This document shows positions 7,909 through 45,427 of a stretch of 64,000 bases of DNA, one piece after another (position 1 is the first letter of the stretch; each line of letters begins with the position of its first letter). The notes beneath the pieces were generated by a model. The model worked only from the letters and a program-made list of their open reading frames with translations. It ran no database searches and was not told where the DNA came from. The stretch comes from Myxococcota bacterium (GTDB lineage Bacteria > Myxococcota_A > UBA9160 > UBA4427): assembly GCA_028823175.1 (NCBI GenBank), contig JAPKBZ010000006.1, forward strand, positions 1 to 64,000, read 5' to 3'. A program made the translations under genes and the position numbers.

Positions 7909-8907
7909 GTGACTGAAAATATCAGCGATCCGGAAGAAAGTCGGCCGGAGCCCGGCAGCAGCGTGCATCCGCAGCCGCCGACGCCACTTCCCGAGAAGAA
8001 AACTCGGAAGCCCCCGGGCGATCTTGCCTCCAGGCTTCTGACGGCTTCCGTGCTGATCCCCGGGGTGCTCTATATCATCGTTGTGGGCGGCTATCCCTAC
8101 CTGGCGACGGTGCTCGTCTTTGGTTTGCTCGCCCAGCGCGAGTTCTACCAGTTGATCGAGGGGAAGGGCGCGCGCCCTCTGACGACCGTGGGCCTCTTCT
8201 TCGGGGCTGCGGTGATCAGCGTGGCCTGGCTCAGCAGCGAGTACCACGCCATGCTGCTGATGACCGCCTCGCTGCTCGTGCTGATGGTCGGGCAGTTGGG
8301 CAAGGCACGCATACAGGAAGCCTTGGCCAGCATTTCAGGGACCTTCTTCGGCGTGTTCTACGTCGCCTGGCTTCTCTCCCACGCGGTGCTTCTGCGCTTT
8401 TTCTATCGCTCCGCCGCCGACCACTCCTCGGAACAATCGCTTTCGGCCGTGGGTCTGGATCCCAACTCGGGTATTTTTCTGACCATTTTTTGCCTGGTGG
8501 CGGTGGTCTTGTGTGATGCCGGTGCCTATTTCGCAGGACGTGCCTGGGGGCGGCGCAAACTCGCACCGGATATCAGCCCTAATAAGAGCGTTGAGGGGGC
8601 CTTGGGGGGCATCGTTGCCGGGACCCTGTCGGCTCTGGCGACCAAGGCGATCTTTGGGGTCTTCTGGCCCGAGCAGTCCGCAATTTTATCCTGGACGGCG
8701 GCATTTGTGATGGCCGGGGTGCTCTGCGTGGTGGGAATCATCGGCGATCTGGTGGAGTCACTTCTCAAGCGTGATGCCGAGGTCAAGGATACGGGTGCGC
8801 TTCTGCCCGGCATGGGAGGCGTCCTCGACCGGATTGATTCTCCGCTCCTGGCTTTCCCCGCGATGTACTACATGATGCTGGGCTATCTGTGGTTTCGACT
8901 CCTTTGA
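7909..8907 (+). CDS. cdsA: Phosphatidate cytidylyltransferase (CDP-diglyceride synthase)
   Basis: CdsA makes CDP-diacylglycerol from CTP and phosphatidate in the inner membrane, supplying enzymes such as PgsA (encoded at 17.9 kb). Seven to eight hydrophobic segments follow a Pro-rich cytosolic N-terminus. The C-terminal family signature is clear: SLLKRDAEVKDTGALLPGMG followed by GVLDRIDS. The usual PGHGG reads PGMGG here. The start is uncertain. I chose GTG 7909 (332 residues). In-frame starts at GTG 7822 or ATG 7825 would overlap the dut stop and add 28-29 residues. No start has a strong Shine-Dalgarno sequence. Confidence 0.93.
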   Translation: MTENISDPEESRPEPGSSVHPQPPTPLPEKKTRKPPGDLASRLLTASVLIPGVLYIIVVGGYPYLATVLVFGLLAQREFYQLIEGKGARPLTTVGLFFGAAVISVAWLSSEYHAMLLMTASLLVLMVGQLGKARIQEALASISGTFFGVFYVAWLLSHAVLLRFFYRSAADHSSEQSLSAVGLDPNSGIFLTIFCLVAVVLCDAGAYFAGRAWGRRKLAPDISPNKSVEGALGGIVAGTLSALATKAIFGVFWPEQSAILSWTAAFVMAGVLCVVGIIGDLVESLLKRDAEVKDTGALLPGMGGVLDRIDSPLLAFPAMYYMMLGYLWFRLL

Positions 8908-41207: not shown

Positions 41208-42032
41208 ATGGGAGTCGAGGATCAATTCAGCTTTACGACGGATGAGGGTGTTGGGATCATCACCCTGAACCGGCCGGAGCGCATGAATGCGGTTAATTGG
41301 GATCTGTGCGCGGCGATATCGGCCAAGCTCCGTGAGCTGCGTACGAATGATGATGTTCGGGTCCTGGTGCTGACTGGGGCCGGTGGTAATTTTTCATCCG
41401 GTGGCGACGCCGAGTTCCTGAGCGGCAACGACGAGGGCCGCCCGATTCCGGGTCTTACGGATACGCCTCTCGAGCGCTATCAGCGCAAGACACCGGCCGG
41501 GGCCTTCGCTGAGATGACCAAGTGGATCATTGAGGTGGACAAGCCCGTGATCGCCGCAGTGGAGGGGGTCTGCATGGGAGCGGGTCTCGCCTACGCTCTG
41601 GCCTGCGATCGGCGTTTCGGGTCGAAGACTGTTCGCATGAGCGCCGCGATGGTTCGCCTGGGTTTCGGTCCCGATTGCGGGATCAGTTGGTTCCTCCCCC
41701 GGGTTACCCGGCTCCCCACGGCGCTCCGCATGATTACCACCGGCGATATCCTCGAAGCCGAGGAATGCCACAGGGAAGGGCTGATCGACGAACTCGTCGA
41801 GGAGGGGGACGCCCTGGAGGCGGCCATGGCCTATGCAAAGAAGCTCGCTCGTGGCCCCAGCGTGGCTATCGACCTTGCCCGGCATTTCGTCTACAAGTCG
41901 CTGACTTCGACCGCCGACGAGATGTACGACTACGAGGGCGTCGCCGCTGTTATGTCGGCGATGACCGAAGACGCCCGGGAGGGGACCCAGTCCTTTCTCG
42001 AGAAGCGCCGGCCCAAGTACAAGGGGCGCTAG
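41208..42032 (+). CDS. Enoyl-CoA hydratase/isomerase (crotonase family)
   Basis: A 274-residue crotonase. The segments are NFSSGGDAEFLSG near residue 65, VEGVCMGAGLAYALACDRRF and MVRLGFGPDCGISWFLPRV. The usual first catalytic Glu position (GGG-x-E) reads GAGLA, and the second is Asp in GPDCG. The enzyme is therefore more like the isomerase or PaaG-like subset than a true hydratase. It ends EKRRPKYKGR, as family members do. GGGAG precedes ATG 41208. Confidence 0.9.
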   Translation: MGVEDQFSFTTDEGVGIITLNRPERMNAVNWDLCAAISAKLRELRTNDDVRVLVLTGAGGNFSSGGDAEFLSGNDEGRPIPGLTDTPLERYQRKTPAGAFAEMTKWIIEVDKPVIAAVEGVCMGAGLAYALACDRRFGSKTVRMSAAMVRLGFGPDCGISWFLPRVTRLPTALRMITTGDILEAEECHREGLIDELVEEGDALEAAMAYAKKLARGPSVAIDLARHFVYKSLTSTADEMYDYEGVAAVMSAMTEDAREGTQSFLEKRRPKYKGR

Positions 42033-42183: not shown

Positions 42184-42726
42184 ATGTCCGGAAATTTCGA
42201 GTCGAGCTGGAAGAAATGCAGCGCCTGCAAGAAGTCGATTAATTTCAGTGCAGCGTATTACGTCTGCAACGTCTCGACGTGCAACCGAAAGCGCACCGCC
42301 CTCCAGTTTTGCGATGTGAGCTGCTGGGAAGTCCACCTGCCCGTGGCCCGGCACCGCGAGTCCTGGGCCGAGGAGAGACGGGCACCGAGCCAGGCCGAGG
42401 CCCAGCGTCAGGCGGCGGCCGAAGCCAGCGGCGAACGCAAACCGCGTCGCATCATCGCCGACCGGCCGAAGCCCGAGCGGAGCGTCGGCGCAGGGGCTAG
42501 CGGCGGGACGGCGCCGACATCGGGTCCGCCCCGGGAAGTGCTGATCGTTGCCAGCCGCCTCAAGGAATACGTCCGGGCTTCAGCGGGGTACAAGACCAGC
42601 GAGGGAGTGCTCGGCCCGCTCTCGGATATCGTGCGCGAGATCGCCGAAGAGGCGATTCGAAACGCCCGGGCCGACGGCCGCATGACCGTGCTGGATCGCG
42701 ATATCCCCAAGCGATTTCGTTCCTAG
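42184..42726 (+). CDS. Zinc-finger/histone-fold fusion protein (bacterial histone)
   Basis: A 180-residue protein in three parts. Residues 12-57 are Cys/His-rich: C12xxC15, C28x4C33, C43x3C47 and H51/H57, similar to a MYND-like zinc finger. Residues 58-116 are a charged, Arg/Pro/Ala-rich flexible linker. Residues 117-178 form a histone fold: a short helix (VLIVASRLKEYVR), loop KTSEG, a long helix (LSDIVREIAEEAIRNARADG) and loop RMTVLDRDI. This pattern matches the Bdellovibrio histone Bd0055 as I remember it (shared EVL-V-S--K, TS, LS, A-ADGR-TV--RDI). ATG 42184 has GAGGGAG upstream; TTG 42109 is less likely. It overlaps the convergent thiolase gene by 4 bp. Confidence 0.82.
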   Translation: MSGNFESSWKKCSACKKSINFSAAYYVCNVSTCNRKRTALQFCDVSCWEVHLPVARHRESWAEERRAPSQAEAQRQAAAEASGERKPRRIIADRPKPERSVGAGASGGTAPTSGPPREVLIVASRLKEYVRASAGYKTSEGVLGPLSDIVREIAEEAIRNARADGRMTVLDRDIPKRFRS

Positions 42727-43901
42727 CGCTTGAGCACTGCCGCAGTCCCGTTGCCGCCGAGCCCGATGCTCTGGGCCATGCCGATCTTCGCGCCGGGGAC
42801 TTGGCGTTCGCCAGCCTCACCGCGCAATTGCCAGGCGACCTCGCAGATCTGAAAGAGCCCCTGGGCGGTGGTGGCCTCACCGAAGCAGAGGAAGCCGCCG
42901 CTGGGATTGATGGGCATGCTTCCGTTGGGCAGGGTTTCACCCTTGTGGAGCAGGCTCTCGGATTGCCCGGGTTCGCACATCCCCCACTCCTCGGGGAAGG
43001 CGAGCTCGTAGTAGACCGTGTTGTCCTGGAGTTCGACGAAGTCGAGATCCTTCGGCCCGATTTCGGCGGCTTCAAGAGCCTTGGCCACGGAGATCCGGGC
43101 CTCGCTGTGGTGGGTGCGGCCCGGGGAGGGGACGCAGCCGAGGCCGCGCGGCAAACCGTCGTCGAAACGCGCGGTGGCCACGGCACTCGAGGCCGCCCAG
43201 ACCGGGTTGCTGGCCTTCTTGCGGGCGTACTCGGCGGAGCAGAGCACCACGGCGGCCGCGCCATCGCTCACGGGACAAATCTCGTAAAGCCGCAAGGGAT
43301 CGCTGACCATGTTCGAGTTGAGGACATCTTCGAGACTGAAGAGTTGACGGAAGCGTGCGTTCTCGTTGTGGGTGCCCACTTTGTGGGCCTTTACGGCGAC
43401 GGCGGCCAAGTCCTCGTGGCTCGTGCCGTACTCCTCCATTCGCTGTCGGGTCAGTAGGGCCCAAAATCCGGGTCCGGGCAGACCGACGCAGCGCTGACGA
43501 AGATATTCCGGGTCAGTCTCGTCCTCGAGACCCGAGGTTTGGATGAAGCCCTTGGGCATTTTTTCGCCGCCGACGACGAGCACGACATCGTGGGCCCCAC
43601 TGGCCACCATCATGTGGCCCACGTTGAAGGCGTTGGCGCCCGCCGCGCAGCCCGCCGAAAGGTTGTAGACGGGCAGGCCCGTGGAGCCCATGTCCTCGAC
43701 GATATCGTTGCCGTTCAGCCCCCAGCCCTTGCCGCCGGAAAAACGAGAACTGGCCGCGGCCACGGCCCCGACTTCCTTCCAGTTGACGCCGGCGTCGGCG
43801 AGGGCCGCGTCCACCGCGACCCGGCAGATCGAGTTCAGGTTCTTCTTGGGGAATTTGCCCCAGGGATGCATTCCGATGCCGAGAACGGCGACTTCACCCA
43901 T
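42723..43901 (-). CDS. Thiolase family protein (SCP-x/lipid-transfer type)
   Basis: A 392-residue thiolase. The nucleophilic Cys is kept in YNLSAGCAAGANAFN (about residue 84). The C-terminal region reads INPSGGFLCFGEATTAQGLF, the Ltp-subfamily variant of the GHP motif, and ends GLGGNGTAAVL. Unlike the protein at 25451, it has a full thiolase nucleophile and may cleave a 3-ketoacyl-CoA. GGAGG precedes ATG 43901. It is the last gene of the leftward operon (NMO, small ORF, etfB, etfA, DUF35, thiolase). Confidence 0.9.
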   Translation of the reverse strand: MGEVAVLGIGMHPWGKFPKKNLNSICRVAVDAALADAGVNWKEVGAVAAASSRFSGGKGWGLNGNDIVEDMGSTGLPVYNLSAGCAAGANAFNVGHMMVASGAHDVVLVVGGEKMPKGFIQTSGLEDETDPEYLRQRCVGLPGPGFWALLTRQRMEEYGTSHEDLAAVAVKAHKVGTHNENARFRQLFSLEDVLNSNMVSDPLRLYEICPVSDGAAAVVLCSAEYARKKASNPVWAASSAVATARFDDGLPRGLGCVPSPGRTHHSEARISVAKALEAAEIGPKDLDFVELQDNTVYYELAFPEEWGMCEPGQSESLLHKGETLPNGSMPINPSGGFLCFGEATTAQGLFQICEVAWQLRGEAGERQVPGAKIGMAQSIGLGGNGTAAVLKR

Positions 43902-44006: not shown

Positions 44007-44435
44007 TCAGCGCGGTTCGAATTGCCAGGAAATCACCTCGTGCCCGTCCTGGCCTTGGCCGAGGGGGGCAAGGACCAGTTCCACCGGGCCACCGACCTTC
44101 ACGGACGCAGGATCCTCGACGTGCAGGCGCCCGATCACCCGCAGGCCATCGGTCTCGAGGTCGACGAGGCCTACGGCGTAGGGGCTATAGGGGTCGGAGG
44201 CGACCACCGGCGGCGGCGGCGGATAGTTCTGGACCGTGACGCTCCAGAGGGTACCGTGCGGCCCGAAATGCGCGGGTTGGATATCTGAGTGGTCGCAGTC
44301 GGGGTTGTGGCAGGCTTCGCTACTCGGGAAATAAGGGGCTCGGCAGGTCTCGCAGCGGGAACCCAGGAGGCGCGGCCCGTCGGAGGTCTCGACGAAAAGA
44401 TCTTTGGCTGCGTGAACGGGAGATGAGTCGGTCAT
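44007..44435 (-). CDS. DUF35 OB-fold/zinc-ribbon protein, partner of the thiolase
   Basis: A 142-residue protein with CETC and CHNPDC zinc-binding pairs (about residues 28-49), followed by an OB fold beginning GPHGTLWSVTVQNYPPPPP. DUF35 proteins serve as acyl-CoA-binding partners of thiolase-fold enzymes. The gene lies 105 bp upstream of the thiolase on the same strand. GGAGAAGG is 2-4 bases before ATG 44435, which decides this start over longer frames. Confidence 0.9.
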   Translation of the reverse strand: MTDSSPVHAAKDLFVETSDGPRLLGSRCETCRAPYFPSSEACHNPDCDHSDIQPAHFGPHGTLWSVTVQNYPPPPPVVASDPYSPYAVGLVDLETDGLRVIGRLHVEDPASVKVGGPVELVLAPLGQGQDGHEVISWQFEPR

Positions 44436-44455
44436 ACCTTCTCCGGAGTGGATCG

Positions 44456-45427
44456 CTAACGAGCGTTGGCCGCCCGAATCAATTCGGGCAGGATCTCGAG
44501 GGCGTCTCCCTGGATCCCGTAGCGCGCGTGCTGAAAAATCGCGGCGTCCGCGTCCCGATTGATGGCAACGATGGTGCCTGCGGCCGAGCATCCCGCCATG
44601 TGTTGGCTGGCGCCTGAGATTCCTACGGCGATGTAGAGATTCGGACGGGTAATTCGGCCGGTCAAGCCCACCTGGTGGCTCGAGTCCACCCAGCCCTCGT
44701 CGACGATGGGTCGCGAGGCGCCGGGCAGGCCTCCGAGCGCCGCGGCCAGTTGTTCGATCAGCTTGTAATTGTCAGCGCCTCCCAGCCCTCGTCCACCGGA
44801 AACGATGATCTCTGCGTCATCGAGACGCGGCCCATCGAAGCTTGCCTGCTCGACGATCTGGATGCGTTCTTCGACGCTCGAGAGATCGACGGCGAGGGTC
44901 TCAGGGCTTACTGCGTCACCTTCGGCGGGCTCGGGTACGACCGCGTTGGCGATGAAGGAGAGAATGCTGCCGCTGCTGACCTCGTAGATCACCCGGGTAT
45001 CGCCGCCGTAGGCCGAAGCCGTGATCTGGTAATTGTTCGCCACCGCTTCCACCGAAATGCCGTTCATGACGACGGCTTTGCCCAGGCGCCCGGCGACCCG
45101 GGGCGCGACGACTCGGGCCTCGTTGGTCTGGTGAAGGATGAGGGTCCCAGGCGAATGGGTTTCCCAGTAGGCAGCGATGGCCTCTACGCAGGCGTCGCTA
45201 CCGGCGGGGTCGAGTTTGGGGTCCGTCGCATGCTGCAATTTGGCGACGCCGTATTTTCCGGCCAGCTCGGGCGCGCTTTCGGGCAGGGGGCCGAGGACGA
45301 GCCAGGCTAGCTCCGTGCCCAGAGCACTCGCCATGCCTCGGCCGATGTGCAGGACTTCTTCGATGCCCTCGGGCAGGCCGTCTCGGCCGGTGCTCCAAGT
45401 GCAGACAACGATGGCATTTTCCGACAT
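44456..45427 (-). CDS. etfA: Electron transfer flavoprotein alpha subunit
   Basis: A 323-residue ETF-alpha (FixB family). The C-terminal FAD-binding domain contains IIVSGGRGLGGADNY near residue 210, VDEGWVDSSHQVGLTGR, and YIAVGISGASQHMAG followed by INRDADAAIFQHARYGI. It accepts electrons from acyl-CoA dehydrogenases, here probably the 27-29 kb pair, and passes them to an ETF-quinone oxidoreductase not seen in this window. It follows etfB by 21 bp. Confidence 0.95.
   Translation of the reverse strand: MSENAIVVCTWSTGRDGLPEGIEEVLHIGRGMASALGTELAWLVLGPLPESAPELAGKYGVAKLQHATDPKLDPAGSDACVEAIAAYWETHSPGTLILHQTNEARVVAPRVAGRLGKAVVMNGISVEAVANNYQITASAYGGDTRVIYEVSSGSILSFIANAVVPEPAEGDAVSPETLAVDLSSVEERIQIVEQASFDGPRLDDAEIIVSGGRGLGGADNYKLIEQLAAALGGLPGASRPIVDEGWVDSSHQVGLTGRITRPNLYIAVGISGASQHMAGCSAAGTIVAINRDADAAIFQHARYGIQGDALEILPELIRAANAR

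What the first reader, a model, noticed from the sequence alone, without database searches (positions are those of the whole stretch)
42184..42726. Bacterial histone fold fused to a MYND-like zinc finger inside a catabolic island
The C-terminal 60 residues have the histone-fold layout (short helix, loop KTSEG, long helix, RxTVxxRDI loop) and share spaced identities with Bdellovibrio Bd0055 as I recall it. The first 57 residues hold three Cys pairs plus two His. A histone with an N-terminal zinc module and a 60-residue basic linker could recruit DNA or partners and is rare in bacteria. Its position between a crotonase and a thiolase (4-bp convergent overlap) suggests either a local regulator or architectural protein, or an unrelated insertion.
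Basis: partly seen in the sequence, partly recalled or inferred. Interest (0 to 1): 0.85.

Follow-up and report, generated by a model that had tools for sequence, protein, structure and literature searches.

The report
ZZ-finger histone of a myxobacterium
This gene encodes a small bacterial protein that joins a DNA-binding histone fold to a zinc-binding finger; it is a good example of the "ZZ histones" already described in 2024, common in this bacterial class, and its place among breakdown-pathway genes is incidental.

Summary
Window 42184-42726 (+) encodes 180 aa: a finger with eight candidate zinc ligands (residues 9-62), a variable linker, and a histone fold (117-174). The fold matches the solved Bdellovibrio histone Bd0055/HBb (PDB 8cmp: E 6e-6 alone, 3e-15 as a family profile) and keeps most of its DNA-contact residues. 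All eight ligands are invariant in 41 homologues. The finger model resembles ZZ domains (weak scores, but they lead the list), not demonstrably MYND. This is the published "ZZ histone" category (Schwab et al. 2024), so not a new kind. It is not rare here: 61 of 91 genomes of its class carry the finger, nearly all fused to the histone. The crotonase/thiolase neighbourhood is shared only within the genus and two sister genera. Modest additions: 20 of 22 finger-bearing genomes in its own family also carry a separate stand-alone histone, against 0 of 39 elsewhere in the class; some relatives keep the finger without the histone, and one has finger plus two histone folds. Best guess: a low-abundance DNA-bound adaptor whose finger recruits an unknown partner. 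I found no paper testing a ZZ histone's function.

The parts
42184..42726 (+). ZZ histone gene, 180 aa (ATG to stop)
   Evidence: the four congeners also start with Met at this position; purifying selection
42208..42369 (+). ZZ-type zinc finger, residues 9-62; candidate ligands C12 C15 C28 C33 C43 C47 H51 H57
   Evidence: all eight ligands invariant in 41 homologues; model resembles ZZ domains such as p62, HERC2, ZZZ3, KCMF1, p300
42370..42531 (+). variable linker, residues 63-116, with the conserved R88 of the RRII patch
   Evidence: 28% mean pairwise identity; R88 invariant in 41 of 41; pLDDT under 50 for residues 84-121
42532..42705 (+). alpha3-type histone fold, residues 117-174 (short helix, KTS loop, long helix, RMTVLDRD loop)
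   Evidence: PDB 8cmp/8fvx matches; predicted helix 12-22, helix 29-52, strand 57-59 of the 69-residue fragment
41208..42032 (+). enoyl-CoA hydratase (crotonase) gene upstream; neighbour only, not part of the system
   Evidence: Pfam ECH_1 E 8e-42; adjacency limited to the genus
42723..43901 (-). thiolase-like gene, convergent, 4-bp overlap; neighbour only
   Evidence: Pfam Thiolase_C_1 and Thiolase_N; adjacency in the genus and two sister genera only

Best explanation
The gene encodes a ZZ histone. The C-terminal fold most likely pairs with a second copy of itself and grips the DNA backbone without sequence preference, bending it as HBb/Bd0055 does. A flexible linker of about 55 residues holds the N-terminal ZZ-type finger, which most likely binds zinc and captures a protein partner (a peptide or an N-terminus), so the protein works as a low-copy adaptor that brings a partner to DNA rather than as a bulk chromosome packer. 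Shown here: domain composition, conservation of all candidate zinc ligands, conservation of most DNA-contact residues, wide retention in the class, no fixed gene neighbourhood. Inferred: homodimerisation, DNA bending, zinc binding, partner recruitment, low abundance. My confidence is about 0.95 that it is a ZZ histone and about 0.5 for the adaptor mechanism.
For: Histone fold: PDB matches to Bd0055/HBb, E 6e-6 alone and 3e-15 as a profile; also the NCBIfam archaeal histone model, below its cut-off. Of ten HBb DNA-contact residues named in PMC11317129, the window keeps five identically (S124, K127, S139, T168, R172), two conservatively (R125, R131) and one as another basic residue (K137 for N22), and lacks two (A123 for T8, M167 for K52); the RD clamp R166/D173 is invariant in 41 of 41. 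Finger: eight ligands invariant; across the family the finger is somewhat more conserved (69% mean pairwise identity) than the histone (61%) and far more than the linker (28%); ZZ domains lead the structural comparison, Z 3.7-4.9 in the top 15 rows. Adaptor rather than packer: the genome has two HU/IHF genes and a separate stand-alone histone; Schwab et al. report low transcript and protein levels of the B. bacteriovorus ZZ histone. The finger survives without the histone: dN 0.06 against dS 0.22 between G033 and G036.
Against: The AlphaFold models are modest (mean pLDDT 62 and 70; only nine sequences in the alignment) and Foldseek gave no significant match for either. Z-scores for ZZ domains are under 5, a range the tool warns about. 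Within the genus the histone is at least as constrained as the finger. Schwab et al. say the eukaryotic ZZ peptide-pocket residues are not conserved and doubt that the finger reads histone tails, so the ligand may not be a peptide. There are no expression, zinc or DNA-binding data for this protein.
Confidence: 0.6

Rival explanations
1. An architectural nucleoid protein: it binds DNA broadly as a histone dimer, and the finger is a second nucleic-acid contact or a bridge between dimers.
For: DNA-contact residues of HBb mostly kept; the linker carries a conserved arginine; in 39 finger-bearing class genomes outside its own family no second histone was found, so there it is the only detected histone.
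Against: Two HU/IHF genes in this genome; low reported abundance of the B. bacteriovorus ZZ histone; finger-only relatives.
Confidence: 0.25
2. The finger is the functional core (a protein-interaction or RNA-binding module) and the histone is a dispensable dimerisation or localisation domain.
For: Finger somewhat more conserved than histone across the family; five finger places without a histone among about 80, in several lineages; an Oligoflexia relative with finger and linker only.
Against: In about nine of ten places the fusion is kept, and the histone is under strong constraint.
Confidence: 0.1
3. A local regulator of the surrounding acyl-CoA catabolic genes.
For: Close packing between crotonase and thiolase genes, conserved in three congeners examined and partly in two sister genera.
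Against: In some 35 other loci of the class the flanking genes are unrelated; a fold of this kind has no expected sequence specificity.
Confidence: 0.05

Closest known systems
ZZ histones (Schwab et al. 2024, PMC11390915; example D0LYE7 of Haliangium ochraceum)
   Same: N-terminal finger with a C4 and a C2H2 site, C-terminal bacterial-dimer-like alpha3 histone; seven of eight ligand positions match those given for D0LYE7 at a constant offset of 8.
   Different: The eighth ligand here is C47 (would be C55), against C53 as printed in the paper; in all 41 sequences here the spacing is C-x3-C.
HBb / Bd0055, bacterial dimer histone of Bdellovibrio (PDB 8cmp, 8fvx, 9ezz, 9f0e)
   Same: Histone fold, RD clamp and most DNA-contact residues.
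   Different: HBb has no finger or linker and is very abundant.
Bd3044, second histone of B. bacteriovorus (PMC10627809)
   Same: Longer, less abundant histone-fold protein; by inference the ZZ histone of that species.
   Different: Its sequence was not compared here; its identity with the ZZ histone is inferred from two papers.
Eukaryotic ZZ domains (p62, HERC2, ZZZ3, KCMF1, p300)
   Same: Overall fold of the finger model (Z 3.4-4.8).
   Different: No significant sequence match; peptide-pocket residues reported as not conserved.
MYND / HIT treble-clef fingers
   Same: Similar Cys/His order and an FC-x3-C-W-x2-H pattern by eye.
   Different: No Pfam match to MYND or HIT was reported for any of 41 members; absent from the structural rows shown, which does not exclude them.

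Membership tests
ZZ histones (Schwab 2024) | C-terminal alpha3 (bacterial-dimer-like) histone fold | tested here: met
   PDB 8cmp E 3.3e-15 by profile; model has short helix, long helix and no long third helix
ZZ histones (Schwab 2024) | N-terminal finger with eight Cys/His ligands (C4 and C2H2 sites) | tested here: met
   C12 C15 C28 C33 C43 C47 H51 H57 invariant in 41 sequences
ZZ histones (Schwab 2024) | Finger has the ZZ fold | tested here: inconclusive
   ZZ domains lead the structural rows, but Z is under 5 and Pfam gives no ZZ match
ZZ histones (Schwab 2024) | Two zinc ions bound | not testable with these tools
   needs metal analysis
Bacterial dimer histones (HBb type) | Histone fold with RD clamp and DNA contacts kept | tested here: met
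   R166/D173 invariant; most contact positions kept, though the K52 position is Met in the window
Bacterial dimer histones (HBb type) | Stand-alone histone fold without other domains | tested here: not met
   finger and linker precede it
MYND finger proteins | Sequence or fold match to the MYND family | tested here: inconclusive
   no MYND match reported in Pfam scans up to E 10, but HMMER filters drop weak matches and the finger matches no family well

The most novel reading that the evidence does not exclude
The finger, not the histone, is the working core: a bacterial zinc-finger adaptor that reads an unknown bacterial ligand and is delivered to DNA by a histone dimer, which has been duplicated in one lineage and lost in others.
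Probability: 0.2. Interest if true: 0.6.

Novelty: new member of a known kind. Interest (0 to 1): 0.3.

Why it matters
Bacterial histones are a young field, and I found no paper that tests the function of a ZZ histone. The class surveyed here uses the fusion widely, often as its only detected histone, so it offers natural variants (fused, finger only, finger with two histones) for asking what the finger does. The individual finding is an ordinary member of a described group.

Tried and rejected
Pfam and NCBIfam called neither domain above its cut-off. Foldseek with both models gave nothing below E 0.001, and the second look with the histone-only model mixed globins, helical bundles and histone H2B, so the histone claim rests on sequence. 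MYND was considered and not adopted; it did not appear in the structural list, which does not exclude it. Neighbourhood conservation was tested and gave no partner gene beyond sister genera. Phage, plasmid and viral collections held no relative. No sigma-70-like promoter and no terminator after the gene were found by consensus scan.

Full report
Observation. The ORF at 42184-42726 (+) encodes 180 residues. The ATG at 42184 is supported by Met at the same place in four congeners. Pairwise dN is 0.14-0.16 against dS 0.5-1.1 with the window, dN being low in histone and finger and high in the linker, so this is a real, constrained gene.

Histone domain. A plain sequence search of the PDB finds Bdellovibrio Bd0055/HBb for residues 117-174 (8cmp E 6.2e-6, 8fvx 9.8e-6), then the Leptospira tetrameric histone (9qt0, 0.009). 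A profile of 41 homologues raises Bd0055 to 3.3e-15 and reaches archaeal histones. The DNA-contact residues listed for HBb in PMC11317129 map onto the window through the alignment, which I numbered by hand: S9-S124, K10-R125, K12-K127, K16-R131, S24-S139, T53-T168 and R57-R172 are identical or conservative; N22 is K137, T8 is A123, K52 is M167. The RD clamp (R166, D173) is invariant in the family. AlphaFold of the fragment gives helix 12-22, helix 29-52 and a short strand and turn, mean pLDDT 70: the expected truncated histone layout, but Foldseek with it found nothing significant.

Finger. All eight Cys/His residues are invariant in 41 sequences. Pfam matches are all weak and of mixed zinc-finger kinds. 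In the full model most of the finger is the best part (three of the first five 10-residue blocks have pLDDT 85-88; residues 31-40 have 64), and a structural second look is led by ZZ domains (a SAGA HAT-module chain, p62, HERC2, ZZZ3, KCMF1; p300 lower) with Z up to 4.9. This agrees with the published ZZ call rather than MYND, though the scores are too low to be decisive.

Literature. Schwab et al. 2024 (PMC11390915) define ZZ histones by exactly this domain pair, show the Haliangium example, report low expression of the B. bacteriovorus one, and doubt that the finger binds histone tails. Hocher et al. 2023 (PMC10627809) name a second, longer, less abundant Bdellovibrio histone, Bd3044; I infer it is that ZZ histone. 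One review (PMC11318664) states that deletion of Bd3044 is lethal, whereas the passages of the primary paper that I read describe deletion attempts for bd0055 only. Searches for 'ZZ histone' and 'Bd3044' in the held library gave two and three papers, none with a functional test in the passages read.

Distribution. 70 of 91 genomes of the class and 143 of 379 of the phylum have a match to the whole protein; with the finger profile, 61 of the 91 class genomes are positive (my count). Named relatives are Myxococcota and Bdellovibrionia/Oligoflexia MAGs. By my count, 20 of 22 finger-bearing genomes of the window's own family also hold a separate stand-alone histone, against 0 of 39 in the rest of the class. 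The window's genome has one such histone at C135:8300-8491 and two HU/IHF genes.

Variants. G014 encodes finger plus two tandem histone folds in one 279-aa ORF. G033 and G036, of one genus, encode finger-only proteins with no histone sequence in any downstream frame; between them dN is 0.058 and dS 0.220 over 62 codons, so imprecise. Other finger-only ORFs are in G152 and G209, as extra copies in G128 and G159, and in an Oligoflexia MAG. These are draft assemblies; repeated occurrence makes artefact unlikely overall, but single cases could be errors.

Context. The neighbours are an FAD-binding protein, a luciferase-like monooxygenase, a crotonase, a thiolase, a ChsH2-like OB-fold protein, two electron transfer flavoprotein subunits, and a nitronate monooxygenase family protein. 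The same order is kept in three congeners examined and partly in two sister genera, and in none of about 35 other class loci. The catabolic setting is therefore incidental.

Verdict. An ordinary, well-conserved member of a described histone category. The mechanism proposed is a DNA-bound adaptor; identification about 0.95, mechanism about 0.5.

Noticed in passing
L083 2010-2849 (-), genome G014: One ORF of 279 aa with a ZZ finger followed by two tandem alpha3 histone folds, a possible built-in dimer.
   Followed up: partly
L121 (G036) and L122 (G033), also L117, L120, L115, L116, L012: Short ORFs that keep the eight-ligand finger but have no histone fold; several lineages.
   Followed up: partly
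L084 about 8300-8500 (-), window genome contig C135: A separate stand-alone alpha3 histone in the same genome; among finger-bearing genomes of the class, such second histones occur only in the window's own family.
   Followed up: partly
window 44010-45427 (-) and on to 46360: ChsH2-type zinc ribbon and OB-fold protein next to the thiolase, with two electron transfer flavoprotein subunits: resembles steroid or side-chain acyl-CoA degradation clusters.
   Followed up: no
PMC11390915 Fig. 4 legend, against window residue C47: The last Cys of the C4 site is printed as C53 of D0LYE7; the family spacing found here (C-x3-C) would put it at C55.
   Followed up: no
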